From: Longimicrobium sp. | GTDB taxonomy: Bacteria > Gemmatimonadota > Gemmatimonadetes > Longimicrobiales > Longimicrobiaceae | Assembly: GCA_036387335.1 (NCBI GenBank) | Contig: DASVTZ010000154.1 | Coordinates: 1-38,612 of the forward strand | Direction: 5' to 3' | DNA: 38,612 nt | Part shown: positions 1 through 12,450 of the stretch, one piece after another | How the letters are laid out: each line of letters opens with the position of its first letter | How positions within the stretch are numbered: the first letter of the stretch is position 1 | Program-made: the position numbers and the translations under genes | Notes under the pieces: model-generated | What the model was told of the DNA's origin: nothing | Seen by the model: only the letters and a program-made list of their open reading frames with translations | Databases searched by the model: none

Positions 1-12
1 CTTCCCCGCCCC

Positions 13-462
13 TCACCCGCCCGTCGATCCAAACCCGCCGGTCCCCCGATCCGTGGCACTCAGCTCCGACGCCTCCTCCACCACCGGCGTCTCGAATCGC
101 GCGAACACCAGCTGCGCGATCCTCATCCCCCGCGGAATCGGCACCGGATCCGGGCCGGCGTTCCACACGATCACGCGCAGCTCGCCGCGATAGTCCGGGT
201 CGATGGTGGCGGGCGTGTTCGGCAGAGTGATCCCGTGCCGCAGCGCCAGCCCGGAGCGCGGCCGCACCTGGCACTCGACGTCGGGCGGCAGCTCGATCTC
301 CAGCCCCGTCGCCACCAGCCTTCGCTCCCCCGCCGCCAGCACGAAGTCCGGCTCCGCCGAAGCGACGTCGTACCCCGCCGCCCCCGGCGTCTGCCGCGCG
401 GGGAGCGGAAGATCGGGATTGGAGGGTAGCCTGCGAAAACACACCGTCATCGGCGGAGGCAT
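13..462 (-). CDS. dut: dUTP diphosphatase (dUTPase)
   Basis: Hydrolyses dUTP to dUMP and pyrophosphate, keeping uracil out of DNA and supplying dUMP for thymidylate synthesis in the cytosol. The 149-residue product has the trimeric dUTPase motifs in order: PGAAGYD near residue 30, [11 protein letters not shown] in the middle (Ser/Arg of the phosphate site), the uridine-binding hairpin [26 protein letters not shown], and the C-terminal P-loop-like [10 protein letters not shown]. Length is normal for the family (about 145-155). The ATG at 462 was chosen because everything 5' of it in this frame is the shadow of the neighbouring gene; the ATG shares one base with that gene's TGA (TGATG), implying translational coupling to the lipoprotein frame upstream. 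Identification is secure; the exact Met (462 or 450) is less so. Confidence 0.95.
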
Positions 463-1074
463 CAGAACTGGCTCTGAGTCTTGCGCCGCTCCCAGAGCCC
501 CGCTTCCGGGGTGGTGTAAGTCAGCACCACGGCCGGGAGACCGGGCTGCAGCGCCAGCATCACCTGTGCACCGTTTACCGGGTCGGTCCATCGCTTCAGG
601 AAGCCGCCGGTCCCCTGCACCAGCGCCGCACAGGGCTCGCCCTGCCCGATCTGCTTCGCGACGCCCTCCAGCTCCGGATACCGGCGCGAGACACCCTGAT
701 CGAACAGGTTGAGCTTCATTACGCACTCTGCTTGCGACTGGAACGTCGCGGCGTAACCGGCGCGGAACATCCCGTGTTCCGGGTGCACGAAGAAGATGAG
801 ATCCGCCTGCTGCCCCGCGAGCGACTCCGGATACCCGAGCACCTTCACCCCCTCCGCGTCGTCGCTGTGGTTCGGCGGATCACCTCGCCGGGCGACGATC
901 GCTTTCACGTCCGTCCCCCCACGCGATCCCGGCCACCCCGGTGATCGTCGGGCCGGCGGTGTCGGGGGCGGCGGCGTTCTCCGCTTCGGCGGAACCGGCG
1001 GACGCGTTCTCCGGCGTCGAACACCCCAGCATCGCGGCGGCGGCGCTGGCCAGCAGGAGCGGCATGATCTTCAT
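462..1074 (-). pseudogene. Lipoprotein gene interrupted by a +1 frameshift in a G6 tract
   Basis: Two frames look like one secreted protein. The 5' part (1074 to about 915) starts with ATG and encodes a lipobox signal peptide (hydrophobic stretch ending LASAAAAMLGC), then an Ala/Glu-rich linker and TITGVAGIAWGD. The 3' part continues in another frame from about 915 to the stop at 462 ([18 protein letters not shown]... to TQSQF). Removing one G from the six at 915-920 joins them as ...GIAWG-TDVKAIVARRG..., a continuous roughly 203-residue lipoprotein; total length minus one is divisible by three. The junction resembles the common pattern of a GIxWG strand followed by an (A/D)V...LG-P-type helix, though I do not recognise the family. 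Either a genuine broken gene, a slippage site, or a sequencing error. A GTG at 908 could start the 3' part alone but would lack a signal peptide. Confidence 0.7.
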
Positions 1075-1121
1075 CGGCGGTCTTCGATCCGGAGACGCGG
1101 TCAGGAGCTGCGGACGCGAGA

Positions 1122-1153
1122 AGGGACGGCCTCCCGCGTGGGAAGCCGTCCCC
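1122..1153 (-). terminator. Hairpin downstream of ald
   Basis: Thirteen-base arms with one mismatch (1123-1135 and 1140-1152) around a four-base loop, 25 bases after the ald stop and 48 bases before the lipoprotein start. No strong T tract follows on the minus strand (TTCTCG), so it is a probable but not textbook terminator. Confidence 0.55.
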
Positions 1154-1177
1154 TTCGATTTACTGCTCCAGCACCCT

Positions 1178-2290
1178 TTAAGCCAGGACGCTGTCCAGCG
1201 CCACCAGCGGCAGCCCGAACGCCTCGGCGACGCCCGGGTACACCACCTGCCCGCCGACCACGTTCAGCCCCAGCGCGAGCGCGCGGTCCTGCCGGCACGC
1301 CTCCTCCCACCCGAGGCGCGCCAGACGCGCCGCGTATGGGAACGTCGCGTTGGTCAGCGCCAGCGTGGAGGTGCGCGGCACCCCGCCCGGCATGTTGGCC
1401 ACGCCGTAGTGGATCACGCCGTCGATCTCGTAGATGGGGTTCTCGTGCGTCGTGGGGCGGATCGTCTCCACGCACCCGCCCTGGTCCACGGCCACGTCCA
1501 CGATCACGGAGCCCTTCTTCATCCGCTTCAGGTCCTCGCGCAGCACCAGCTTGGGAGCCTTGGCGCCCGGCACCAGCACGGCACCCACCAGCAGGTCGGC
1601 CGTCTCCAGCCGCTCCAGGATGTTGTGGCGGTTGGAGTAGATCATCTCCACGTTCGCCGGCATCACGTCGGAGAGGTAGCGCAGGCGGTCCAGCGAGAGG
1701 TCCAGGATGGTGACGCGGGCGCCGAAGCCGGCCGCCATCTTGGCCGCGTTGATCCCCACCACGCCGCCGCCGATGATCACCACGTTGGCGGGCGCCACGC
1801 CCGGCACGCCGCCCAGCAGCATCCCGCGGCCGCCGTAGTACTTCTCCAGGTACTTGGCGCCGGCCTGGATCGCCATGCGGCCGGCGACCTCGCTCATGGG
1901 GGTGAGCAGCGGGAGCTCGCCGTTGGGGAGCTGCACCGTCTCGTACGCCACGGCCACCGCGTTGGAGGCGATGAGGGCGCGGGTGAGCGCCTCGTCGGCC
2001 GCGAAGTGGAAGTAGGTGAAGAGGAGCTGGTTGGGGCGGATGCGCGGGTACTCCACCGCGATCGGCTCCTTGACCTTCATGATCATCTCGGCGCGGGCCC
2101 ACACCTCTTCCACGTCGTGGACGGTGGCGCCGGCCGCCTCGTACTGGGCGTCCGAGAAACCGCTCCCCAGCCCGCCGCCGCGCTCCACCATCACGCGGTG
2201 GCCGGCCTGCACGAGCGCCTCGGCCCCGGCGGGGACGAGAGCGATGCGGTTCTCGTTGGTCTTGATCTCTTTCGGAACCCCGATCAGCAT
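1178..2290 (-). CDS. ald: Alanine dehydrogenase
   Basis: Catalyses the reversible NAD-dependent oxidative deamination of L-alanine to pyruvate and ammonia, linking carbon and nitrogen metabolism in the cytosol. The 370-residue product begins [20 protein letters not shown], the family signature (substrate-binding Arg15 and the Lys74-region KVKEP), has the substrate-site [11 protein letters not shown], the Rossmann glycine motif [15 protein letters not shown] around residues 170-185, and the DVAVDQGG and conserved [16 protein letters not shown] segments typical of Ald. Length matches the family (about 370). The ATG at 2290 is set by homology; no good Shine-Dalgarno sequence precedes it. It is separated from pnp by a repeat element and followed by a hairpin, so it is probably its own unit. 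Confidence 0.96.
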
Positions 2291-2430
2291 GAGCGGTCTT
2301 CGCCTGATGGGAGGTGTATCGCAAGCGCCCGCGACAGCCGCGGGGCGGGCGGGCGCACAATATGGCACGCCCGCATCCGTTTGGCGAGCCTCCGCGCCCC
2401 TCGCCAGAAACGTACCTCGAAACAACCAGT

Positions 2431-2604
2431 CTCACGCGGAGACGCGGAGACGCAGAAAGAACAACAGCAAAAAGCTCACGCAGAGAACACAGAAGGAACA
2501 GAAAGCCACAGAGAACTTCCTTTGCTTTTCTCTCTGTGTCTCTGTGTCTCTGTGTGAGCCATGCAGTTGCAGCTCTCCCCCGCGTCTCCGCGTCTCCGCG
2601 TGAG
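2431..2604. repeat. Nested palindromic repeat (GAGACGCGGAGACGC / CTCTGTGTCTCTGTG family)
   Basis: Outer 23-base arms at 2431-2453 and 2582-2604 are perfect reverse complements (built of CGCGGAGA units). Inside lies a second, looser inverted repeat rich in CACAGAG/CTCTGTG units, ending with a GAGCCATGCAGTTGC box. A related element occupies 31082-31193. It fills the ald-pnp gap, makes spurious open frames on both strands and carries no gene. The rest of 2291-2430 shows nothing I can name. Confidence 0.8.
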
Positions 2605-2632
2605 GCTGCAGTTACGAAGACCGCGAATGGAA

Positions 2633-2666
2633 AGCGCCCGGACACCGCGAACGGTGCCCGGGCGCT
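2633..2666 (-). terminator. Terminator hairpin after pnp
   Basis: Fourteen-base arms (2633-2646 and 2653-2666) with one mismatch and a six-base loop, 20 bases beyond the pnp stop. On the minus strand the stem ends GCGCTTTCC, a short T run. Probable end of the rpsO-pnp unit. Confidence 0.7.
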
Positions 2667-2686
2667 ATCAAGACGAACGGCGCGGC

Positions 2687-4801
2687 TCAGGCCGGCTGCG
2701 ACTCGCCCTTCTGCGCCAGCTCGGCCAGCGCGGCCTTGCGCGACAGGCGCAGGCGGCCCTTCTCGTCGATCGAGAGGAGCTTCACCTGCACGGCGTCGCC
2801 CTTCTTGAGCGCGTCCTCCGTCTTGTCCAGGCGCCCGTCCTGGATCTCGGAGATGTGGAGCAGCCCCTCGGTACCCGGAAGGATCTCCACGAACGCCCCG
2901 AACGCGGTGGTGTTCTTGACCACGCCGTCGTAGATGCGGCCCACCTCGGCCTCCTCGGTCATCCCGGCGATCATCCGGCGCGCCATCTCGCCGGCCTCGC
3001 GCCCGACCGCGGCGATCGTCACCGTGCCGTCGTCGTCGATGTTGATCGACGCGCCGGTCGACTCCTGGATCGCGCGGATCGTCTTCCCCTTGGGCCCGAT
3101 GATCTCGCCGATCTTGGCCACGGGGACCTTGATGGTAATGATCCGCGGCGCGTACGGCGACATCTCCGGACGCGGCGCGGCGAGCGCCTTGTCCATCTCG
3201 TCCAGGATGTGCATCCGGCCCGTGTACGCCTTGCGCAGCGCCTCGCGCAGCAGGTCGGTGGAGAGGCCCTCCTCCAGCTTGATGTCCATCTGGATGGAGG
3301 TCACGCCCTCGCGCGTGCCGGCGACCTTGAAGTCCATGTCGCCCAGCGCGTCCTCGGAGCCCAGGATGTCGGTCAGGATGGCGACGCGGTCGCCCTCCTT
3401 GATCAGCCCCATCGCCACGCCCGCCACCGAGGCACGCATCGGCACGCCGGCATCCATCAGCGCCAGCGAGCCCGAGCACACCGACGCCATCGACGACGAC
3501 CCGTTGCTCTCCAGGATGTCGCTCACGATGCGGATGGTGTACGGGAACTCCTCGTACGCCGGCAGCAGCGGCTCCAGCGCGCGCTCCGCCAGGTGCCCGT
3601 GCCCGATCTCGCGGCGGCTCGTGCCGCGCATGGGCCGCACCTCGCCGGTGGAGTACGGCGGGAAGTTGTAGTGCAGCATGAACGACTTCTTCTGCTGCGT
3701 GGGGAAGTCGATGGTGTCGTACGCCTGCTCGTCGTCCTGCGTGCCGAGCGTGGCGGTGCCCAGCGACTGCGTCTGCCCGCGGGTGAAGAGCGCCGAGCCG
3801 TGCGCGCGCGGCAGGACGCCGGTCTCCACCGTGATGGGACGCACCTGGTCCGTGCTGCGCCCGTCGGAGCGTACGCCCTCGGCCAGGATCATCTCGCGCA
3901 TGGTGCTCTTCTCGAGGTCCTTGAACACCGAGCCGATGTCCTTCTCGCCTTCCGGGAACTCCTCGGCAAGCGCGGCCAGCGTCTCGCTGCGGGCGGTGCT
4001 CAGCGCCTCGGCGCGGCCGTGCTTGTCCGCGATGCGCAGCGCCTGCGAAACGCGCTCCGCCGCCAGCGACTCCACGCGGGCGCGGATCTCGGCCGCGGGG
4101 GCCTTGGGCGTCCACGACATCGTCGCGGGCTTGTCGATCATCGCGACCACCTCGCGCTGGATCGCGATCAGTTCGCGGATCCCGGCGTGCGCCGCCACCA
4201 GGGCGTCGGCGATCTCGTCCTCGCTCACCTCGTTGGCGCCGCCCTCCACCATGGTGATGGCGGATTCGGTGCCGGCCACGATCACGTCCAGCGTGCTGTA
4301 GCCGAGCTGCTCAAAGGTCGGGTTCAGCACCCAGTGCCCCTGGATGCGCCCGATGCGCACCGCCGCCACCGGCTCCGCGAACGGAATGCGGGAAAGGGCC
4401 AGCGCCATCGACGCGCCCGTCACCGCCAGCACGTCAGCGTCGTTCTGCTGGTCCGCCGAGACCACCGTCACGAAGATCTGCACCTCGTTCGCGAACCCTT
4501 CCGGAAAGAGGGGACGCAGCGGCCGGTCGGTCAGACGGGCGGCCAGGATCTCCTTGTCCGAAGGGCGCCCCTCGCGCTTGATGAACCCGCCGGGGAACTT
4601 CCCCGCGGCGTAGGTGCGCTCGCGGTACTCCACGGTGAGGGGGAAGAACGGGAGGTGGGTGGGGTTGTCCTGCGCCGTCGCCGCGCACAGCACCATCGTC
4701 TCGCCGAACTGCAGGGTGCACGAGCCATCGGCCTGGCGGGCCATCCGGCCCGTCTCGATGATCAGCGGGCGCCCCGCGAACTGCCTTTCCAGCTTTGCCA
4801 T
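2687..4801 (-). CDS. pnp: Polyribonucleotide nucleotidyltransferase (PNPase)
   Basis: Phosphorolytic 3'-5' exoribonuclease of the RNA degradosome; degrades RNA to nucleoside diphosphates. The 704-residue product shows the full family layout: first RNase PH domain (MAKLERQFAGRPLIIETGRMA at the N terminus; FFPLTVEYRERTYAAGKFPGGF), an all-helical linker, the second, catalytic RNase PH domain (RSDGRSTDQVRPI, RGQTQSLGTATLG, MRGTSRREIGHGHLAERAL, SNGSSSMASVCSGSLALMDAG), then KH (KIGEIIGPKGKTIRAIQ near residue 570) and S1 (GRIYDGVVKNTTAFGAFVEI near 625). Length is typical. Start ATG at 4801 fixed by homology; a weak purine-rich stretch precedes it. It follows rpsO on the same strand, the canonical rpsO-pnp order, with a hairpin between. 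Confidence 0.98.
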   Translation of the reverse strand: MAKLERQFAGRPLIIETGRMARQADGSCTLQFGETMVLCAATAQDNPTHLPFFPLTVEYRERTYAAGKFPGGFIKREGRPSDKEILAARLTDRPLRPLFPEGFANEVQIFVTVVSADQQNDADVLAVTGASMALALSRIPFAEPVAAVRIGRIQGHWVLNPTFEQLGYSTLDVIVAGTESAITMVEGGANEVSEDEIADALVAAHAGIRELIAIQREVVAMIDKPATMSWTPKAPAAEIRARVESLAAERVSQALRIADKHGRAEALSTARSETLAALAEEFPEGEKDIGSVFKDLEKSTMREMILAEGVRSDGRSTDQVRPITVETGVLPRAHGSALFTRGQTQSLGTATLGTQDDEQAYDTIDFPTQQKKSFMLHYNFPPYSTGEVRPMRGTSRREIGHGHLAERALEPLLPAYEEFPYTIRIVSDILESNGSSSMASVCSGSLALMDAGVPMRASVAGVAMGLIKEGDRVAILTDILGSEDALGDMDFKVAGTREGVTSIQMDIKLEEGLSTDLLREALRKAYTGRMHILDEMDKALAAPRPEMSPYAPRIITIKVPVAKIGEIIGPKGKTIRAIQESTGASINIDDDGTVTIAAVGREAGEMARRMIAGMTEEAEVGRIYDGVVKNTTAFGAFVEILPGTEGLLHISEIQDGRLDKTEDALKKGDAVQVKLLSIDEKGRLRLSRKAALAELAQKGESQPA

Positions 4802-4917
4802 TTTCTGTTTTCCGTTCTGCAGGATTGCCGGGGGAGGCCGCGAGCGGCACCGTGCTCCCCCGTGCACACGGCCCGCGTATCGCCTAGTTTGTCCGCTTCT
4901 TTCGCTATCTACGCGAC

Positions 4918-4949
4918 AAGGCCGCACGGGGGCTTCCCCATGCGGCCTT
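4918..4949 (-). terminator. Hairpin between rpsO and pnp
   Basis: Perfect nine-base arms (4918-4926 AAGGCCGCA, 4941-4949 its complement) with additional GGG/CCC pairing inside the 14-base loop. It lies 104 bases after the rpsO stop and 117 bases before pnp. In enterobacteria the rpsO-pnp gap holds both the rpsO terminator and an RNase III-processed stem; this hairpin could serve either role. Confidence 0.6.
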
Positions 4950-5052
4950 CTCGTCGTTCACGCGTGCTTCGTACACCCTCTGCGGACGGCCGGGCACGGC
5001 ACGCCGAAGCGCGCCGCCGCCATCCCGCGAAGCTGCCGCCGGCCGACCAACC

Positions 5053-5319
5053 TCAGTGGCGCAGCCCGAGGTCCGCGATCAGCGCGCGGTACCCTTCCAG
5101 GTCGTTGCGCTTGAGGTAGTCCAGCAGGCTGCGGCGCTGCCCGACCATCTTGAGCAGTCCGCGGCGGCTGTGGTGATCCTTCTTGTGCTCGCGGAAGTGA
5201 CCGGTCAGGTGGTTGATGCGCGCCGTAAGCAGCGCGACCTGCACCTTGGTGGAGCCACGGTCGTTCTCGTGGAGTTGGTACTTCTTGATGATGTCTTCGC
5301 GCTCGAGCGTCTCGGCCAC
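5053..5319 (-). CDS. rpsO: 30S ribosomal protein S15
   Basis: Binds 16S rRNA helices 20-22 early in assembly of the small-subunit platform. The 88-residue product carries the S15 signature ([58 protein letters not shown]). I chose the GTG at 5319 over an in-frame ATG at 5343 because CTGGAGG (5328-5334, minus strand) stands eight bases 5' of the GTG as a strong ribosome binding site and gives the usual 88-89 residues; the ATG start would put this site inside the gene. Followed by a hairpin and pnp. Upstream is the lower-GC islet described separately. Confidence 0.97.
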
Positions 5320-5440
5320 GATCGGAACCTCCAGAGGAGTCAAAACTGATCAGGAAGTAGCCGACCCTTCGATGCTTCTTGTTCGGAAACGTCGCTGGAT
5401 CAACTTGCAAGCCATGGAAGCTAACAGCGCGCGCGCTTTT

Positions 5441-5644
5441 TCACAACTGCGCGCCAGTCTCGACCGAAGGCTGCTGCTCACCTTTTGCCAGCCACCCGCG
5501 TGCCCTCGCGAGGTACTGCTCGATGCGCAGCAGGTCGAAAGGCTCAGCGTCCGGGTCTTTGCGCGCCAATTCCAGCTCAGCGATCCAGGCACGGATCTTC
5601 GAAGGCTCCGAGTAGGAAGCCACTGGAACGTCGATGATCATCAT
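5441..5644 (-). CDS. Small hypothetical protein, copy 2 of a tandem paralogous pair
   Basis: A 67-residue acidic protein, no signal peptide or membrane segment. It aligns without gaps over its whole length to the protein at 5685-5888, with about half the residues identical: a shared core PVA-YS-P-(K/R)IR-WI-EL, then AEP-DL--IEQYL--A-GWL, and a variable C-terminal 15 residues. I do not recognise the family. The ATG at 5644 has AGGGGG seven bases upstream; the gap to the preceding copy is 40 bases. Codon and base use are less GC-rich than in neighbouring genes. It is the last gene of a three-gene unit headed by the HNHP protein, so a partner or inhibitor role towards that protein is conceivable but only inferred. 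Confidence 0.75.
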   Translation of the reverse strand: MMIIDVPVASYSEPSKIRAWIAELELARKDPDAEPFDLLRIEQYLARARGWLAKGEQQPSVETGAQL

Positions 5645-5684
5645 CGCTTAGCCCCCTGGATACGCCAGTTAGAACTGCGGCAAG

Positions 5685-5888
5685 TCAGGCTGCACTTCCA
5701 CTCTCCATGCCGCGACTCGACTGTGCTTCGTCGAGCCAGCCCTGCGCCATTACCAGATACTGTTCGATGAGAGTGAGGTCGTACGGCTCAGCGTGCGGGC
5801 TGTTGCGCATCGCCTTCAACTCCTTGATCCACTCTCGAATACGGGCCGGCGGTGAATACGGCGCCACCGGAAGTTCAACTATCAGCAT
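5685..5888 (-). CDS. Small hypothetical protein, copy 1 of a tandem paralogous pair
   Basis: A 67-residue protein beginning MLIVELPVAPYSPPARIREW, paralogous to the next gene. Predicted mainly helical by inspection (IREWIKELKAMR, IEQYLVMAQGWLDEAQ), with two conserved Trp. No known family recognised. Its ATG at 5888 lies three bases after the TGA of the HNHP gene, and its AGGAGG ribosome binding site is inside the last codons of that gene (TATCAGGAGGTTTGA), which indicates translational coupling. The tight coupling to the upstream gene plus duplication is the pattern often seen for toxin/immunity or enzyme/adaptor modules; that is inference. Confidence 0.78.
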   Translation of the reverse strand: MLIVELPVAPYSPPARIREWIKELKAMRNSPHAEPYDLTLIEQYLVMAQGWLDEAQSSRGMESGSAA

Positions 5889-5891
5889 CGC

Positions 5892-6386
5892 TCAAACCTC
5901 CTGATATGCGAAACGGAATTGCGCTGCCATCCTGCGTGCCACGTTGTGCGTCTGGCCGATCCATGCCTCCTCGTCCGAGAGCAAGCCCGCATGTACGAAA
6001 CGCCCGAACCTCGCGCGCGCATGGTCCATTGATCTCCAGTATGCCGCCCGCAGCTCCTCGCCTCCCGCAGACTCTTGAGCATATCCAAAATGGCGTGTAT
6101 TCGCCATTGTGCTCATGCGAAAAGCGCGCTCCGGCCCGTAAGCATACATCACTCTCACGCCATGCCTAAGCAGCATCCATATGTCCGCTTGCGAGAAGGA
6201 ATCGCTCCTCGGGTGATTGTGCAGGAACACGTTGCCCCGAAGCAAGCCCGCTTTACCGAACGGAACTGTCACCCGGTACGGCTCCCCCGGCCGGCTGCGC
6301 ACGTAGTACAGCGCCTTCCCCGCTGCGTTAAAGATCACCCCGTGCTCGACTGGCTCGTGGCGGATCAGCTCCCCCGCGCCTTCCAC
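5892..6386 (-). CDS. HNHP-motif (JAB/MPN-like) hypothetical protein, possibly N-terminally truncated
   Basis: A 164-residue product from a GTG at 6386. Residues around 50-70 read VFLHNHPRSDSFSQADI, close to the HxHP-x5-SxxD zinc motif of JAB/MPN (RadC, deubiquitinase-like) metalloproteins, and EPVEHGVIFN upstream could provide the motif's Glu. It is not an HNH nuclease motif. The C-terminal half (GEELRAAYWRSMDHARARFGRF...IGQTHNVARRMAAQFRFAYQEV) is helical and unassigned. The same frame stays open for about 29 codons before the GTG, including a plausible protein segment (TRKFSLDDFQGVS) and an Arg-rich run, then meets a TGA at 6474-6476 with no start codon between. So the gene may be the detached C-terminal domain of a larger protein, for example of phage-head or polymorphic-toxin type. 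GC content is roughly 55-60% against about 70% around it. Family assignment is tentative. Confidence 0.65.
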   Translation of the reverse strand: MEGAGELIRHEPVEHGVIFNAAGKALYYVRSRPGEPYRVTVPFGKAGLLRGNVFLHNHPRSDSFSQADIWMLLRHGVRVMYAYGPERAFRMSTMANTRHFGYAQESAGGEELRAAYWRSMDHARARFGRFVHAGLLSDEEAWIGQTHNVARRMAAQFRFAYQEV

Positions 6387-6521
6387 CGAGACGCCCTGGA
6401 AGTCGTCCAGGCTGAACTTTCGTGTACCGATCCGAGCCTCCGTGCGCCGCCTTCGTGCTTGGCATGGAGGATCTCACAGACGCCTCCGATTGGCTCAAGG
6501 ATGAGAAAGGAGGCGCAGGCG

Positions 6522-6711
6522 GTCAACCGTTAAGGCCCGTTAGGAGCGAACACGGCCAGACGCTGAAATCAGTTGTTCGACAGGTGTCCCGAAGGTGCGG
6601 GTTTGGCGCCCGGTACGGTAGCGGATGCTGCATCCGCGACTCGCGGACGATGCAGGCTCTCGCGTCTGCCGTCAAGCGTTACAGGCCCTGAAGTGCGAAC
6701 ACCGCCACGCG
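6522..6711. repeat. Imperfect direct repeat pair flanking a bulged hairpin
   Basis: Segments at 6522-6563 and 6670-6711 match at roughly three of four positions (shared blocks GTCAA-CGTTA, AGGCCC, GCGAACAC). Between them, 6628-6655 forms a hairpin (CTGCAT and CCGCGA arms with a three-base bulge on one side). The 374-base gap between the HNHP gene and ribF otherwise has no coding signal. The bulged hairpin beside a TAACGCTTGA box on the minus strand superficially recalls integron attC sites, but canonical R'/R'' boxes are not clear. Confidence 0.45.
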
Positions 6712-6760
6712 CGGCATCGCTCGTCCGGCGTGTGTCGTGAAACGGGCGGGCCGCAGGGGA

Positions 6761-7729
6761 CTACGTGAAGCCCAGGATCTCGCGCCCGCGCTGCTCGTCG
6801 GCGTGCATGGCCTGGATGAGGGCGTCGACGGAGGTGAAGGGGAGGATGTCGCGGATGCGCTCGACGAACTCCACGCGGACGCGGTCGCCGTAGATGTCGC
6901 CGCTCCAGTCCATGAGCCAGAGCTCGACGCTGGGGGCGAAGCCGGCGAAGGTGGGGCGCGGGCCCAGGTGCAGCAGCCCCGGGAGCCGCTCGCCGCGCAC
7001 CCAGCCGTGCACCGCGTAGATCCCCTCGCGCGGCAGCATCTTCTCCGGATCGCCGACCTGGATGTTGGCGGTGGGGAAGCCCAGCTCCCTCCCCTTGCGC
7101 TCGCCGCGCACGACGACGCCGTCGACGGTGTAGGAGCGGCCCAGGAGCCGGTTGGCCGCGCCGACGTCGCCGTCGCCCAGGAGGCGGCGGATGCGGGAGG
7201 AGGAGATCGGCTCGCCGTCCACCTCGACGGCTTGGACCACGTCGACGGCGAAGCCCATCTCCTGGCCGATCTGGCGCAGGGTGGCGACGCTCCCCTCGCG
7301 GTCGCGGCCGAAGCCGTGGTCGTAGCCGATCACCAGCTCGCGCATCCCCACGCGCCGCACGAGGATCTCCTCGACGAAGCGGCGGGCGGAGTAGAGCTGC
7401 AGCGTGCGGGTGAAGGGGACGAAGACGACGTACTCCAGCCCGCTCTGCGCCAGGATGTCGCGCTTCTCCGTGACCGTGGTGAGCAGCGGCGGCGCGTGCT
7501 CCGGGCGCACGATGCGCAGCGGGTGCGGATGGAAGGTCACCAGGATGCTGCGCCCGCCCACCCGCTCGGCCCGCCGCCCGATCTCTTCCAGCACCTCGCG
7601 ATGGCCGCGGTGCACGCCGTCGAAGGTGCCCACGGTCACCACGGCCGGGCGCCCGTCGCGGGGCAGCGCGGGCGGGAGCGCGGGGTCAATCGCGAACTCC
7701 CGCGGCTCGTCGCGGGGGGTGGGCGTCAC
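6761..7729 (-). CDS. ribF: Bifunctional riboflavin kinase / FAD synthetase
   Basis: Converts riboflavin to FMN and FMN to FAD in the cytosol. The 322-residue product has the N-terminal nucleotidyltransferase domain (VVTVGTFDGVHRGHREVL with the HxGH-like motif, VTFHPHPLRIVRP, YDHGFGRDREG, ISSSRIRRLL) and the C-terminal riboflavin kinase domain (GRELGFPTANI with the PTAN metal/phosphate motif, GIYAVHGWV, VEFVERIRDILPF). Length is normal. Start GTG at 7729 overlaps the truB stop (GTGA) and is preceded by GGAGG seven bases upstream, inside truB; an ATG much further 5' in this frame is a shadow of truB. Last gene of the rimP-to-ribF run. Confidence 0.96.
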   Translation of the reverse strand: MTPTPRDEPREFAIDPALPPALPRDGRPAVVTVGTFDGVHRGHREVLEEIGRRAERVGGRSILVTFHPHPLRIVRPEHAPPLLTTVTEKRDILAQSGLEYVVFVPFTRTLQLYSARRFVEEILVRRVGMRELVIGYDHGFGRDREGSVATLRQIGQEMGFAVDVVQAVEVDGEPISSSRIRRLLGDGDVGAANRLLGRSYTVDGVVVRGERKGRELGFPTANIQVGDPEKMLPREGIYAVHGWVRGERLPGLLHLGPRPTFAGFAPSVELWLMDWSGDIYGDRVRVEFVERIRDILPFTSVDALIQAMHADEQRGREILGFT

Positions 7730-8613
7730 CCTGCCACCTCCGCGGGGAAGACCTTGCGGGGCTTGATGGCGTCTCCGGCGCGCTCGCCGATGGCCAGGAG
7801 GCGGCCGTCCGCGCCGGCGAGGGCGAGCGGCACGCCCTGCGGCGCATCGGCCGGGGCCGGGATGGCGCGGCCGAAGGAGAGCGCCGCTTCCCCGGCGGCA
7901 TCCACCGGGACACGCGGGAGGGCGGCGAGGGCGTCCAGCGGGGTGAGCATGGCGGCGCGGACGCGATCCTCGTCCGCCAGCGCATCCAGCGGGACGGCGC
8001 GCTCGATGCCGTGCGCGCCCACGCGGGTACGGCGCAGGGCGCGGAGATGCGCGCCCGTGCCCAGCGCTTCGCCGGCGTCGCGGGCGATGGCGCGGATGTA
8101 GGTGCCGCTCCCGCACACGACCTCGAAGTCCACACCCGGAAGCTCAATACGAGTCACCCGGATCTCGTGGATGGTGACGGTGACCGGCTTGCGCTCCACC
8201 TCGCCGCCGCGGCGGGCAACGGCGTACATCCGCTCGCCATCCACCTTTTTCGCGGAGTAGGTGGGGGGAAGCTGCTCGATCGTCCCCACCTGGCGCAGGA
8301 GCGCGGCCTCGATCGCCTCGTACGTCAGCTCGCTCCACGACGCGCTGCCGCCGACGACCTCGCCGGTGAGGTCGTCGGTGTCGGTGGTTTCGCCCAGGCG
8401 CAGGGTGGCGGCGTAGGCCTTGGGGAGCCCGGTCAGGTACTCGGCGATGCGCGTGGCCGGGCCGACGCACACCAGCAGGAGGCCGGACGCAAAGGGATCC
8501 AGCGTCCCCGTGTGCCCCACCTGGCGCGTGCGCAGGGCGCGGCGCACGTGGGCCACCGCGTCGTGCGACGTGGGGCCGACGGGCTTGTCCACGGGGAGGA
8601 CGCCGGTCAGCAA
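7726..8613 (-). CDS. truB: tRNA pseudouridine(55) synthase
   Basis: Isomerises U55 in the T-psi-C loop of tRNAs. The 295-residue product starts LLTGVLPVDKPVGPTSHDAV and contains the TruB catalytic motif GHTGTLDPFASGLLLV with the nucleophilic Asp, YAATLRLGETTDTDD, and PPTYSAKKVDGERMYAVAR, followed by a C-terminal PUA-like region. Start is TTG at 8613; repeated CCCCATT units precede it and no clear ribosome binding site is visible. It overlaps ribF by four bases and follows rbfA, the conserved infB-rbfA-truB order. Confidence 0.96.
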   Translation of the reverse strand: MLTGVLPVDKPVGPTSHDAVAHVRRALRTRQVGHTGTLDPFASGLLLVCVGPATRIAEYLTGLPKAYAATLRLGETTDTDDLTGEVVGGSASWSELTYEAIEAALLRQVGTIEQLPPTYSAKKVDGERMYAVARRGGEVERKPVTVTIHEIRVTRIELPGVDFEVVCGSGTYIRAIARDAGEALGTGAHLRALRRTRVGAHGIERAVPLDALADEDRVRAAMLTPLDALAALPRVPVDAAGEAALSFGRAIPAPADAPQGVPLALAGADGRLLAIGERAGDAIKPRKVFPAEVAG

Positions 8614-8615
8614 AA

Positions 8616-8651
8616 CCGGGGAATGGGGAATGGGGACTGGGGAATGGGGAG
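8616..8651. repeat. GGGGAAT(G) microsatellite-like repeat
   Basis: Four near-perfect seven-base units of GGGGAATG on the plus strand in the 58-base rbfA-truB gap. The same unit is found at 9086-9120 and, inverted, at 9161-9188. Confidence 0.8.
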
Positions 8652-8671
8652 CCGTGGCCGTGCGGGACGCG

Positions 8672-9079
8672 TCACGCTTCTTCCTCGTCCTTTGGAGCCA
8701 GCGAGCTGTCCGGCGGCGTCTCGGTGAGGCGGTCGAAGGGGAGCGCCTCGCGCAGGAGCTGCTCGATGCGCTGCGCTTCCTCCAGCACCCGGTCCTGCTC
8801 GAAGTGCAGCTCGGGGATGCGGCGCATGTGCAGCCGCTGCCCCAGCGCCTTGCGGATGAAGGGCGCGGCGCTGCGCAGCCCGGCCAGCAGCTCCTTGCGC
8901 TCCTCGTCCGTCCCCAGCGCCGTGAAGTACACCTTGGCGTGGTCCAGCTCGGGCGAGGTCTGCACGGCCGTGATGGTGGCCAGCGACACCCGCGGGTCGC
9001 GCACGGCGTCGCGCACCAGCAGGGAAATCTCTTCCCTGAGCTGCTCGTTGATCCGGTCGGTTCGCTTGAAGCGCGGCAT
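8672..9079 (-). CDS. rbfA: Ribosome-binding factor A
   Basis: KH-fold factor that binds the 30S subunit and helps mature the 16S rRNA 5' end. The 135-residue protein begins MPRFKRTDRINEQLREEISLL and contains VRDPRVSLATITAVQTSPELDHAKVYFTALG and IRKALGQRLHMRRIPELHFEQD, all standard RbfA segments; the C-terminal acidic tail is variable. Start ATG at 9079 by homology; the upstream in-frame extension is a repeat/DUF503 shadow. Lies between the DUF503 gene (111-base gap filled by an inverted repeat) and truB. Confidence 0.95.
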   Translation of the reverse strand: MPRFKRTDRINEQLREEISLLVRDAVRDPRVSLATITAVQTSPELDHAKVYFTALGTDEERKELLAGLRSAAPFIRKALGQRLHMRRIPELHFEQDRVLEEAQRIEQLLREALPFDRLTETPPDSSLAPKDEEEA

Positions 9080-9085
9080 GTACGG

Positions 9086-9188
9086 ATGGGGAATGGGGAA
9101 ATGGGGAATCGGGAATGGGGGAACCGAAAAAGCCAACTGCGGGCGGCCGTCAGCAGTTACCATTCCCCATTCCCCATTCCCCATTCCC
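9086..9188 (-). terminator. Composite inverted repeat with an intrinsic-terminator core between DUF503 and rbfA
   Basis: On the minus strand, AACTGC (9158-9153) pairs with GCAGTT (9140-9135) around a 12-base loop and is followed by GGCTTTTTC. This core is flanked by GGGGAATG-type units at 9161-9188 and their inverse at 9086-9120, which can extend the stem. It may terminate or attenuate transcription from infB-DUF503 into rbfA-truB-ribF. Confidence 0.55.
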
Positions 9189-9189
9189 C

Positions 9190-9471
9190 TCAGTAGTACG
9201 TCGTATACGAATCCACGATCCTCGCCCGCCCGTCCATCTCCACCATCGTGTCGCACGAGGAGAGGACCTGCTGGGCATGCTTCCGGTCGGCCGAGACCAC
9301 GCAGACGGCGATCTCGGCGCGCTGGTGCAGGTCGTGGTGCCCCGTCTCGGCGGCGGACACGTTGAAGCGATGGTGGAGGCGGTCCTTGAGGCTCTTCACC
9401 ACCTGGCGCTTGTCCTTGAGGGACTGGCACCCGGCGATGTGGAGCTCCCACACGACCACCCCCACCGTCAC
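9190..9471 (-). CDS. DUF503 (YlxP-like) protein
   Basis: A 93-residue protein of the DUF503 family, which is small, dimeric, and usually encoded between infB and rbfA; function unclear, linked by gene position to ribosome maturation. Evidence: start MTVGVVVWELHIAGCQSLKDKRQVVKSLKDRLHHRFNVSAAE, where the H-x-SLKxKR-xVxSxxDRLRxRFNVxVAE pattern is the family hallmark, and the mid-protein AVCVVSADRKHAQQVL. Start is GTG at 9471, only three bases after the infB stop, so the two are translationally linked. No unusual features. Confidence 0.92.
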   Translation of the reverse strand: MTVGVVVWELHIAGCQSLKDKRQVVKSLKDRLHHRFNVSAAETGHHDLHQRAEIAVCVVSADRKHAQQVLSSCDTMVEMDGRARIVDSYTTYY

Positions 9472-9474
9472 GGC

Positions 9475-12450
9475 TCAGGTCGCGGCGCGGGCGGCTTCCT
9501 CGGCGGCGGCACCGGCCAGCGTGCGCGCAACCTCCTCCACCCGGTAGCACTCCAGGACGTCGCCGATCTTGATGTCGTTGAAGTTGGACACGTTCAGGCC
9601 GCACTCGAAGCCCTCGCGGACCTCGCGCGCGTCGTCCTTGAAGCGCTTCAGCGACCCCAGCTCGCCCTCGTAGATCTGCACCGCGTCGCGGATCACGCGG
9701 ATGCGGCCGCGGCGCTCCAGCACGCCGCGGGTGACCATGCAGCCGGCCACCGTCCCCACGCGCGGCACCTTGAAGAGCTGGCGAACCTCGGCCGTGCCCA
9801 GCAGCACCTCGCGCTGCTCGGGCGACAGCAGGCCCTCCATCGCCAGCTTCACCTCGTCCACCACCTCGTAGATGATGTTGTAGAGGCGGATGTCCACGTC
9901 CTCACGCTCGGCCACCTGCCGGGCTTCGCCGGTGGGGCGCACGTGGAAGCCCACGACGATGGCGCTGGAGGTGGACGCCAGCAGCACGTCCGACTCGTTG
10001 ATGGCGCCCACGCCGCGGTGGATCACCTGCACCTGCACCTCGCTCGTGGAGAGCTGCTCCAGCGAGTCGGAGAGCGCCTGCACCGAGCCGTCCACGTCGC
10101 CCTTGATGACCAGGTTGAGCGTCACGCGCTCGCCCTTGGCCAGCATTTTCGACAGGTCCGTCAGCTTCACGCCGCGGCTGCGGATGCGCATCCGCTTCTC
10201 GCGCTCCAGCCGCTGGCGGGTCTGCGCGATCTCGGCGGCGCGGTCCTGGTCCATCGACACCATCTGGTCGCCGGCGTTGGGGACGCCGGGAAGGCCGAGG
10301 ATCTGCACCGGGATCGCGGGCCCCGCCGCCACCACCGGGTGCTGGCGCTCGTCCAGCATGGCGCGGATGCGGCCGTTGTACAGGCCGCACACCACGTGGT
10401 CGCCCACGCGCAGGGTGCCGTTGGTGACGAGCACCGTGGCGACCGGCCCCTTGCCGATGTCGAGCTGCGCCTCGATGACCACGCCCGCCGCCTCGCGCGC
10501 CGGGTTGGCGCGCAGGTCCAGCAGGTCGCTCTGCAGGAGGACCTTCTCCAGCAGCTCGTCGACCCCCATCCCGCGCTTCGCCGACACCTCGGCCGACATC
10601 ACGTCGCCGCCGAAGTCTTCCAGCACGATGCCGTGCTGAAGGAGGTCCTGCTTGACCTTCATCGGGTTGGCGTCCGGCAGGTCCACCTTGTTGACCGCCA
10701 CCACGATCGGCACGCCGGCGTTCCTGGCGTGCGAGATTGCTTCGATGGTCTGCGGCATCACCGAGTCGTCGGCCGCAACCACCAGGATGACCACGTCGGT
10801 CACCTCGGCGCCGCGGGCTCGCATGGCGGTGAAGGCCGCGTGGCCCGGGGTGTCCAGAAAGGAGATGGCGCGCCCGTCCTGCAGCTGCACGTGGTACGCG
10901 CCGATGTGCTGCGTGATGCCGCCGGACTCGCCCGCGATGACGTTGGTCTTGCGGATGTAGTCCAGGAGCGACGTCTTGCCGTGGTCCACGTGGCCCATGA
11001 CGGTGACCACCGGCGGCCGCGCGCGCAGCGTGCTCTCGGCGTCCGGCTCGGCGTCTTCCTCGCCGTGGTCCGCGGCGTATTCCTCTTCGCGGATGGCGCT
11101 GAAGCCGAACTCGTCCAGCAGCAGCTCGATCTGGTCGAAGTCGAGGCGCTGGTTGATGGTGACCATCATCCCGAGGTTCTTGAACGCCGAGCCGATGATG
11201 TGGCTCGCCGGCACGTCGATCAGCTCGGCCAGCTCCGCCACCGTCAGGAACTCGTTGACGCGGACGGTGGTGGCCTCCTCGGTGCGCTGGCGCAGCAGCT
11301 CTTCCTCGCGGCGCTCGTGCTGCGTGGGGCCCATGTCGCGGCGGCCCCGGCCCTTCTTGCGCCGGTCGCCGCCGTCCATGGCGGCCATGGTCTTCCGGAA
11401 GTTGGCGTCCACCGCCCCCTGGTCGACCGAGCCCTTCCCCTTCTTCCCCTTCTTCTTGTCCTTTTTGCCGGTGCTGCTCACGCCGGCGTTGGCGCCGGCG
11501 CCGGGCACGTTGCGGCCGGAGCCGTCACCGCCGCCACGCGGCGGGCCGAACGAGCCGGTGCGGGCCGAGGGCGGCGCACCGCCCGTGCGGGTGGGCATCG
11601 GCGGAGCGCCGGCGCGGGCCGGGCGCGGCACGAAGTCGTTGGGACGCGCCGGACGCGGCGGCTCCGCGGCTCCACGCGTGTCCGCGGGGGGACGGCGCTC
11701 GCCGCCCTGACCCGGACGCCCGCCGGGCGCCTGCGGGCGCACCGAGGGGGGCGGGGTGGGACGCGGCGGCGCGGCCGGACCGGACGACGCGGCGGGACGC
11801 AGCGGCTCGCGCGGCGGACGGGCGTCCTGGCGCGGCGCGCCTTCCGGGCGCGCGTCGGGGCGTAGCGTGCGCTGCGACGGCGGGCGCGCCGAGATGGGCG
11901 CGGCCGGGCGCGGGGCCGCTTCCTCGGCGACGGGCTGCGGCGGCGAGGCGGGGGCGCTGGCCTCCGTCTCCTCCACGGGCGCGGCGGCTCCGGGGGCGGC
12001 CTCCAGCGTCTCGCCGGGCTCGGCGGGCGGCGCGACGGACGAGTCCACCACGACGGTCACGCCCGCGGGGGGCGCGCCGCCGGTGGTCACCAGCGCGGCG
12101 CCGCGCTCAGCGGCGGCCTCGGCGGCCTCGGCGGCGATCGCGTCGGCGGCGTCGGCCACCGGATCGGCGGTCGAGTCGGGGGCGTTCTCGGGAGCTTCCT
12201 CGGTCTCTTCGCGCTTGCGGCGGCGGCGCTTGGGCGCGCCGGCCACGTCACCGATGGCGGCTTCCAGGGCCTCGCCCACGTCCTTGTGGCCCAGGCGCCG
12301 CTCACGCTCGATCAGCGTGCGGAGCCGGGCGACGTGCTCGTCGGCCAGATCCGACATGTGGCTGCGGATGGGGACGTCCATCTCCCGGAGGAGGTGCACC
12401 AGGGACTCAGCGGGAACGCTCAGTTCCTTGGCGACTTCGAACACACGCAT
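9475..12450 (-). CDS. infB: Translation initiation factor IF-2
   Basis: GTPase that brings formyl-Met-tRNA to the 30S initiation complex and promotes subunit joining. The 991-residue product has an N-terminal IF2_N helix bundle ([21 protein letters not shown]), a very long low-complexity linker (about residues 70-400) rich in Pro, Ala, Arg and Gly, a second IF2_N-like segment ([24 protein letters not shown]), the G domain from about residue 480 ([21 protein letters not shown]), then domains II, III and the tRNA-binding C-terminal beta barrel. Length is near the upper end for the family because of the linker. ATG at 12450 starts directly in IF2_N. Sits in nusA-ylxQ-infB order. Confidence 0.98.

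What the first reader, a model, noticed from the sequence alone, without database searches (positions are those of the whole stretch)
5441..6386. Low-GC islet with an HNHP-motif protein coupled to two tandem paralogous small proteins, inserted in the ribF-rpsO junction
Seen: three minus-strand genes whose starts are coupled (the ribosome binding site of gene 2 is inside gene 1); GC near 55-60% against about 70% outside; an HNHP...SxxD motif; two 67-residue paralogs. Known: rbfA-truB-(ribF)-rpsO-pnp is a conserved gene order. Inferred: a transferred module placed between housekeeping genes, perhaps an effector domain with duplicated partner or inhibitor proteins.
Basis: partly seen in the sequence, partly recalled or inferred. 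Interest (0 to 1): 0.72.

Follow-up and report, generated by a model that had tools for sequence, protein, structure and literature searches.

The report
Phage-head enzyme domain with small partners
A bacterium carries, between two housekeeping genes, a free-standing copy of a metal-enzyme-like domain that phages usually attach to a head protein, followed by two small sister proteins that look like its inhibitors; this is probably a toxin-and-immunity cassette taken from a phage.

Summary
The islet is real: three minus-strand genes at 5441-6386, the most AT-rich stretch of the window (60.7% against 71.1% GC). The 164-aa protein is confidently predicted (pLDDT 93) and resembles the JAB/MPN (JAMM) fold, with conserved E14, H56, H58, S65 and D68. 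Relatives lie in 42 viral loci; in 28 of 40 records tested the same frame carries the phage MuF head domain. Here the domain stands alone and no Pfam, NCBIfam or PADLOC model matches it. All six copies found in the genus are followed by one to three 67-aa-family genes; the small family also occurs without it. One phage has a small-family gene overlapping its MuF-JAB gene; other phages have other small genes there. Between two close relatives the enzyme and first small gene differ about 4-20 times more at synonymous sites than seven flanking genes, at dN/dS 0.12-0.15. The ribF-rpsO junction is expanded, with differing cargo, in all 6 readable genus genomes, and compact in 8 of 11 outside. Best reading: a phage-derived toxin-immunity cassette with duplicated immunity genes. 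Toxicity, substrate and binding are inferred. New variant of a known kind.

The parts
5892..6386 (-). Gene 1: stand-alone JAB/MPN-like protein (164 aa from GTG; start uncertain), homologous to the C-terminal domain of phage MuF head proteins
6183..6221 (-). HNHP-x5-S-x2-D motif (H56, H58, S65, D68): predicted metal ligands
   Evidence: In the 40-row alignment A4: H56 40/40, H58 40/40, S65 39/40 (T in 1), D68 40/40
6345..6347 (-). E14 codon, predicted catalytic glutamate near the first strand
   Evidence: E in 39/40 rows; the other row has a gap there
5897..5902 (-). Ribosome-binding site AGGAGG of gene 2, inside the end of gene 1
   Evidence: read from the sequence
5685..5888 (-). Gene 2: small partner A (67 aa), predicted helical hairpin, probable immunity protein
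5441..5644 (-). Gene 3: small partner B (67 aa), paralogue of A
6387..6760 (-). Non-coding leader between ribF and gene 1 (73-85% identical to G006 over 6430-6729, against 93-100% per 100 nt in ribF); holds a 45-nt direct repeat at 73% identity
6761..7729 (-). ribF, one flank of the junction
   Evidence: ORF; name from gene order and sequence, recalled
5053..5319 (-). rpsO, the other flank of the junction
   Evidence: ORF, searched; name recalled

Best explanation
The islet is a phage-derived toxin-immunity cassette. Gene 1 is the effector domain of a MuF-type polymorphic toxin (JAB/MPN fold, metal-dependent hydrolase) that has lost the MuF capsid-targeting part and is made as a free cytoplasmic protein. 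Gene 2, translated from a site inside gene 1, encodes its cognate immunity protein, a small helical hairpin that would bind and block it; gene 3 is a duplicated, diverging second immunity protein. In the host the pair would act inside the cell, either as an addiction-like toxin-antitoxin module or to protect against phages (or neighbours) that deliver the same domain. Shown by computation: predicted fold, conserved metal-ligand residues, homology to MuF C-termini, constant gene pairing in the genus, a phage precedent for the pair, excess divergence against the flanks, purifying selection on genes 1 and 2. Inferred: enzymatic activity, toxicity, binding and inhibition, the cellular role.
For: Homology: a profile of 5 rows found 42 viral loci; in 38 of 42 the domain ends a frame of 377-842 aa. 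Phage_Mu_F (PF04233) is in 31 of 40 of these virus records (28 of 40 over the curated cut-off; 2 near-identical records not sent), by frame length in the same frame as the JAB domain in 28 of the 31. Fold: pLDDT 93, pTM 0.87; best PDB hit JAMM1 (Foldseek E 3.1e-3, prob 1.00; Z 7.5, rmsd 3.0, 100 aligned); viral hits led by a phage minor capsid protein (E 5e-10). Pairing: 6 of 6 loci, in 5 of 10 genus genomes, have small gene(s) right behind gene 1, with two (gene 1, small, small) sets in G008. Phage L072 has a small-family gene overlapping the end of its MuF-JAB gene (E 1.1e-6, 26.6 bits; best of 20 shuffled sets of 5000 ORFs 13.6 bits). Among 45 distinct loci 35 have an ORF of up to 120 aa at the domain's end, against 28 of 81 other long ORFs. 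Small genes also occur without gene 1: 9 of 346 phylum genomes have a small gene, 2 of 346 have gene 1, and profile searches of 11 loci around orphan small genes found no gene 1. Gene 1 is interrupted in G004 and G005 while a small gene stays open. G000-G006: dS 0.72 (gene 1), 0.99 (A), 0.22 (B), 0.05-0.19 in 7 flanking genes; dN/dS 0.15, 0.12, 0.55.
Against: No toxicity, binding or enzymatic data. The artificial fused co-fold gave pTM 0.74 with a low-confidence link and its coordinates could not be read, so no interface was judged. No PDB hit reaches E 0.001 and Z 7.5 is under the tool's caution line of 8; deaminase-fold enzymes are mixed in with the JAB proteins among the matches (Z 6.2 for CDADC1; Foldseek ranks 6 and 8). 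JAB proteins can be processing enzymes or regulators rather than toxins. Only 1 of 45 distinct loci has the window's small family. Gene 3 is weakly constrained (dN/dS 0.55). Codon-usage differences between AT-richer and GC-rich genes could account for part of the dS contrast, although gene 3 in the same islet does not show it.
Confidence: 0.55

Rival explanations
1. Counter-defence enzyme: the MuF-borne JAB domain is injected with phage DNA to strip ubiquitin-like tags laid by bacterial anti-phage conjugation systems (as Cap3-type JAB enzymes are known, from recall, to reverse such tags); the free-standing copy regulates or mimics such a system and the small proteins are its cofactors or regulators.
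For: JAMM1, an archaeal Rpn11 homologue (Z 6.6) and a chain of a Cap3/CD-NTase entry (Z 6.4) are among the best fold matches; full E/HxH/S/D set.
Against: No ubiquitin-like or conjugation gene was seen by eye among the genes called beside it; the genome was not searched for such systems. The small proteins are predicted as helical hairpins, not ubiquitin folds; duplicated and orphan small genes fit inhibitors better.
Confidence: 0.15
2. Nuclease-like RadC-type JAB effector: the same cassette, but the enzyme acts on nucleic acids or nucleotides rather than peptides.
For: Profile comparison with RadC of these genomes aligns the HNHP region (E 4e-6, prob 87, 60 columns); 3 of 40 members match Pfam RadC weakly (best E 0.06); Zhang et al. 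2012 argue that toxin JABs may be nucleases (PMC3482391, section 26 read).
Against: The fold search ranks peptidase-type JAMM1 (Z 7.5) above RadC (Z 6.0), though the gap is small; no nucleic-acid-binding feature was looked for.
Confidence: 0.15
3. Morphogenesis enzyme or decaying remnant: in phages the domain is a virion processing enzyme, and the islet is a scrap with no present function.
For: Gene 1 is interrupted in G004 and G005; gene 3 is weakly constrained; in Aphanizomenon phage CL131 the domain is a separate gene between the major capsid gene and a tape-measure-like gene.
Against: dN/dS 0.12-0.15 for genes 1 and 2 with all metal-ligand residues kept in the window; no phage-like gene seen by eye in the islet; partner present at all six loci found.
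Confidence: 0.1

Closest known systems
MuF polymorphic toxins of temperate phages (Jamet et al. 2017, PMC5576092; passages and sections 7 and 8 read)
   Same: Effector domain homologous to C-termini of MuF proteins; small gene directly downstream, as for 89.4% of 191 MuF toxin genes there (25.5% of 952 short ones)
   Different: No MuF domain, no phage genes around; chromosomal; two or three small paralogues; 'JAB' does not occur in that paper's main text, which gives 20% with a metallopeptidase domain
Bxa toxin with two immunity proteins (PMC11699363; passages and section 7 read)
   Same: MuF-linked effector with two adjacent small immunity genes
   Different: Bxa is an ADP-ribosyltransferase and its two immunity proteins work by different mechanisms (one enzymatic, one binding); here the two are paralogues and the effector is JAB-like
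Tox-JAB-1 and Tox-JAB-2/DUF4329 polymorphic toxins (PMC3482391; passages and section 26 read)
   Same: JAB-type toxin domain with E, HxH, S, D and, in that paper, cognate immunity genes
   Different: The window protein does not match DUF4329; 1 of 40 relatives does, at E 0.0095; the passage lists other partners (Imm65, Imm-NTF2 family 2)
RadC, JAMM1 and Rpn11-type JAB proteins
   Same: Fold and metal-ligand pattern
   Different: 10-17% identity in the structural alignments with 5ld9, 6fno and 2qlc; outside the Pfam RadC model

Membership tests
JAB/MPN (JAMM) superfamily | JAB fold | tested here: met
   AF2 model pLDDT 93; first three Foldseek rows are JAMM1, and JAB/MPN proteins lead the second aligner's list. 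Limits: no PDB match at E <= 0.001, Z below 8, deaminases mixed in; the call rests on model plus motif
JAB/MPN (JAMM) superfamily | Glu, HxHP, Ser, Asp metal-site set (definition partly recalled) | tested here: met
   E 39/40, H 40/40, H 40/40, S 39/40, D 40/40
JAB/MPN (JAMM) superfamily | Metal-dependent hydrolase activity | not testable with these tools
   needs purified protein
MuF polymorphic toxin | N-terminal MuF domain | tested here: not met
   164 aa protein, no Pfam match
MuF polymorphic toxin | C-terminal domain shared with MuF proteins | tested here: met
   42 viral loci; MuF in 31 of 40 records, same frame in 28 by frame length
MuF polymorphic toxin | Encoded in a phage or prophage | tested here: not met
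   flanks are ribF/truB and rpsO/pnp; no phage-like gene seen by eye among those called in 1-12000; not scanned gene by gene
Toxin-immunity / type II toxin-antitoxin pair | Coupled two-gene unit, small partner | tested here: met
   3 nt between genes 1 and 2, RBS inside gene 1; pairing at 6 of 6 loci found
Toxin-immunity / type II toxin-antitoxin pair | Toxicity neutralised by the partner | not testable with these tools
   needs expression assay
RadC (PF04002) | Score above Pfam cut-off | tested here: not met
   window protein none; 3 of 40 relatives weak, best E 0.06. The genome has three other RadC matches, one of them only 31 positions long
Tox-JAB-2 (DUF4329, PF14220) | Match to the family model | tested here: not met
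   window protein none; 1 of 40 relatives at E 0.0095

The most novel reading that the evidence does not exclude
A branch of phage-injected JAB enzymes without a family model, each paired with one of several unrelated small inhibitor families, has been captured several times by bacteria of this genus as free chromosomal modules; the host keeps and multiplies the inhibitor genes as a stock of immunity against phages that inject the enzyme, so that orphan small genes act as an anti-phage defence.
Probability: 0.25. Interest if true: 0.75.

Novelty: new variant of a known kind. Interest (0 to 1): 0.52.

Why it matters
JAB-like effectors on phage head proteins turned up in 42 viral loci from one pattern scan, yet no Pfam, NCBIfam or PADLOC model matched more than 3 of 40 members. 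This locus offers a compact, separately encoded enzyme plus candidate inhibitors that can be cloned and tested, and could tell whether such phage domains act on ubiquitin-like tags, proteins or nucleic acids. The joint divergence of enzyme and first partner, and the orphan partners elsewhere, would link phage-delivered effectors to chromosomal immunity genes.

Tried and rejected
Rejected: a ubiquitin-like fold for the small proteins (two helices predicted). Rejected: the leader as a dispersed repeat: its conserved motif occurs once in the genome at up to 3 mismatches. Rejected: a palindrome in the leader that looked strong by eye; it folds no better than shuffles (z -0.59, 53 of 200 shuffles fold as well) and no inverted repeat of 20 nt was found. 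Not supported: an intact prophage around the islet (by eye). No use: single-protein scan of genome contigs (0 relatives); phage and plasmid tblastn gave only 3 phage records and 1 plasmid for gene 1 and none for the L072 small gene; viral scans with single small proteins gave only the L072 contig itself and nothing; PDB sequence search with the profile (2 sequences, best E 1); PADLOC with 40 members (3 families, 1 member each, best E 0.0014); NCBIfam with 40 members (RadC model in 2, best E 0.076; Ppl_antiphage in 1 at E 3.2e-4, not followed).

The tree of the domain puts the window/G006 pair, the G008 pair and G005 in three places among phage sequences, but many backbone supports are under 0.8 and the window pair groups with one divergent phage row, so several separate captures are only suggested. 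The phylum scans with profiles scored at most 10 candidates per genome for gene 1 and 17 for the small family, and seem to have left out G004, G005 and G008, so absence there is not proof.

Full report
OBSERVATION. The three minus-strand ORFs exist at the given coordinates. Gene 2 starts 3 nt after gene 1 and its AGGAGG lies inside gene 1; gene 3 starts 40 nt after gene 2. GC is 60.7% against 71.1% for the window; 24 of 1507 sliding windows of equal length are as low or lower, and the lowest clear of the region is 65.3%. The small proteins share 49% identity. None of the three matched Pfam, NCBIfam or PADLOC at E <= 10 (HMMER's filters drop most weak matches); gene 1 has one weak PHROG match (phrog_20982, E 0.033).

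WHAT GENE 1 IS. In the search of 99 genomes (own included) gene 1 appears in 5 at E <= 0.01, all in the window's genus, two of them weakly. A profile of five rows then found 42 viral loci and two loci in bacterial genomes, one of which has the contig length and sequence of the G005 locus. In 38 of the 42 viral loci the domain lies in a frame of 377-842 aa, as a rule at its end; the other four frames are 129-248 aa, two of them cut by contig ends. Phage_Mu_F (PF04233) is found in 31 of 40 of these virus records, 28 over the curated cut-off (two records identical to others at this place were not sent). By frame length it shares the frame with the JAB domain in 28 of the 31; in three records (those of L049, L058 and L078) it is a separate frame. 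Of ten proteins scanned one by one, six match PF04233 at E <= 1e-4, four of them over the cut-off, always upstream of the JAB part; PHROGs calls four of the seven phage or Comamonadaceae proteins sent head-and-packaging proteins. The domain is also a separate gene in Aphanizomenon phage CL131, between the major capsid gene and a tape-measure-like gene, and on a Hymenobacter plasmid next to a Fic gene and about 2.6 kb from a conjugation gene. So gene 1 is the MuF C-terminal domain without MuF.

FOLD AND SITE. With 40 rows the model has pLDDT 93 and pTM 0.87. Foldseek against the PDB gives no hit at E <= 0.001, but the first three rows are all P. furiosus JAMM1 (E 3.1e-3 to 7.3e-3, probability 1.00). 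The second aligner gives JAMM1 Z 7.5 (rmsd 3.0, 100 aligned), proteasome chains up to 6.7, an archaeal Rpn11 homologue 6.6, a chain of a Cap3/CD-NTase entry 6.4 and RadC 6.0; deaminase-fold proteins are mixed in (CDADC1 6.2), and the tool warns that Z under 8 can be a common arrangement. Against viral models there are 19 hits at E <= 0.001, led by a phage minor capsid protein (E 5e-10). Site residues in the alignment: E14 39/40 (gap in the other), H56 40/40, H58 40/40, S65 39/40, D68 40/40. Profile comparison with RadC of these genomes aligns the HNHP region (E 4e-6, prob 87, 60 columns). The roles of these residues are recalled from the JAMM literature, not measured.

THE SMALL PROTEINS. In 14 aligned members P7, I17 and W20 are invariant and V8, S12, E23, L24, A48, W51 and L52 nearly so. 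Within the ten genus genomes (G000-G009), gene 1 is at six loci in five genomes, each followed by small genes: G000 two, G004 one, G005 one, G006 three, G008 two and two. G008 holds two complete gene 1-small-small sets in a row. Small genes without gene 1 are at the site where G005 has the pair (G000 contig C43) and, judged by eye from the neighbours, at the G008 site in G003, where two small units are fused in one frame; others are in G011, G016 and G017 and in G088, G242, G246 and, weakly, G006 C19 and G016 C55. Profiles of gene 1 found nothing in 11 loci around such genes. A small gene is in 9 of 346 phylum genomes at E <= 1e-4 and gene 1 in 2 of 346 at E <= 1e-3, with limited scoring depth. 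Gene 1 is interrupted in G004 and G005; the G005 record is a metagenome-assembled genome, so assembly errors are possible.

PHAGE PRECEDENT. In phage contig L072 the MuF-JAB gene is overlapped by a 59-aa gene matching the small profile (E 1.1e-6, 26.6 bits; the best of 20 shuffled sets of 5000 ORFs scores 13.6), followed by a gene that resembles gpG-type morphogenesis proteins (by eye). Of 49 loci looked at (48 viral, 1 bacterial; 3 dropped as identical at this place, 1 with too little sequence), 45 remain, some of them close relatives: 35 have an ORF of up to 120 aa starting at -37 to +80 nt, against 28 of 81 other ORFs of 250 aa or more in these loci. Eleven carry a Cys-rich 'AFPxGIP' protein by pattern (12 with L051 by eye), 6 a 'WPEKH' or 'NGHRVW' protein, 1 the window's family, 27 none of these patterns (26 without L051). 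The four AFPxGIP proteins scanned all match phrog_33375, of unknown function, one of them weakly (E 0.012 against about 1e-7). In G082 one frame joins an AFPxGIP part (phrog_33375, E 2.5e-4) to a small-family part (24.0 bits; E 4.4e-5 for the genome), so two of the partner families meet in one protein.

THE JUNCTION. Of 11 genomes outside the genus with an rpsO locus, ribF ends 118-169 bp upstream (between matched ends) in 8, 529 bp in 1, and is not seen in 2, one of them at a contig edge. Of 10 genus genomes, 8 gave rpsO; in the 6 whose junction could be read it is 1.1-8.2 kb: G000, G004 and G006 have the islet (G006 with about 2.5 kb more), G001 two other genes, G003 and G008 several genes, in G003 including what look by eye like toxin-antitoxin genes (PIN, ribbon-helix-helix, RES types; names recalled, not scanned). 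G002 and G009 end before ribF; G005 and G007 gave no rpsO match.

DIVERGENCE. Between G000 and G006, dS is 0.72 for gene 1, 0.99 for gene 2 and 0.22 for gene 3, against 0.05-0.19 for infB, DUF503, rbfA, truB, ribF, rpsO and pnp (names recalled); dN/dS is 0.15, 0.12 and 0.55. Between G000 and G004, gene 1 (5' and 3' parts) and gene 2 are at dS 1.07, 3.52 and 3.09, the last two near saturation, against 0.10-0.27 for rbfA, truB, ribF and rpsO. The orphan small gene of G000 C43 against its G005 counterpart has dS 0.84, its two neighbours 0.38 and 0.28. Nucleotide identity to G006 per 100 nt falls from 93-100% in ribF to 73-91% across the islet. Genes 1 and 2 thus look like a pair replaced or exchanged together, with gene 3 near the genome background. 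Codon bias lowers dS in the GC-rich genes, so the contrast is partly uncertain; gene 3 is the internal control.

MECHANISM AND PLACE AMONG KNOWN SYSTEMS. The anatomy (effector domain, coupled small gene, spare paralogue, orphan small genes, divergence as a pair) is that of polymorphic toxin-immunity modules. Jamet et al. 2017 report small ORFs behind 89.4% of 191 MuF toxin genes and a metallopeptidase domain in 20% of them (PMC5576092; passages, sections 7 and 8 read). Bxa is a MuF-linked toxin with two immunity proteins (PMC11699363; passages and section 7 read). Zhang et al. 2012 describe two JAB toxin clades and argue for nuclease action (PMC3482391; passages and section 26 read); Iyer and colleagues' polyvalent-protein paper (PMC5512222; authors recalled, passages read) makes the same case for RadC. 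It works like these, but it is not a MuF toxin by definition (no MuF part) and is not recognised by the DUF4329 or RadC models. Six searches of the paper library listed no title or abstract start that names a JAB domain on MuF with these partners; supplementary tables and papers outside the library were not seen, so an earlier mention is possible.

Noticed in passing
L152 (G082 contig C43), about 1446-1826 (-): One open frame joins the Cys-rich AFPxGIP protein found behind phage MuF-JAB genes (phrog_33375) to a domain of the window's small family.
   Followed up: partly
L091 (G003 contig C82), about 2110-2460 (-): Two small-family units fused head to tail in one frame, at what looks like the site where G008 has two full sets.
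   Followed up: partly
L042, 3732-5453 (+): A MuF-JAB phage protein has an intein-splicing match below the family's cut-off (PF14890, E 5e-5, residues 226-508) spanning the stretch from behind MuF into the JAB part, hinting at self-processing.
   Followed up: no
L115 (G003 ribF-rpsO junction), 6301-8129: Genes that look by eye like PIN/ribbon-helix-helix and RES-type toxin-antitoxin pairs sit in the same junction in another species.
   Followed up: no
window 6519-6563 and 6668-6712: A 45-nt direct repeat (73% identity) in the leader between ribF and gene 1, role unknown.
   Followed up: partly
L027 (G006), 6661-9211: About 2.5 kb without a called gene lies between the third small gene and rpsO.
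   Followed up: no
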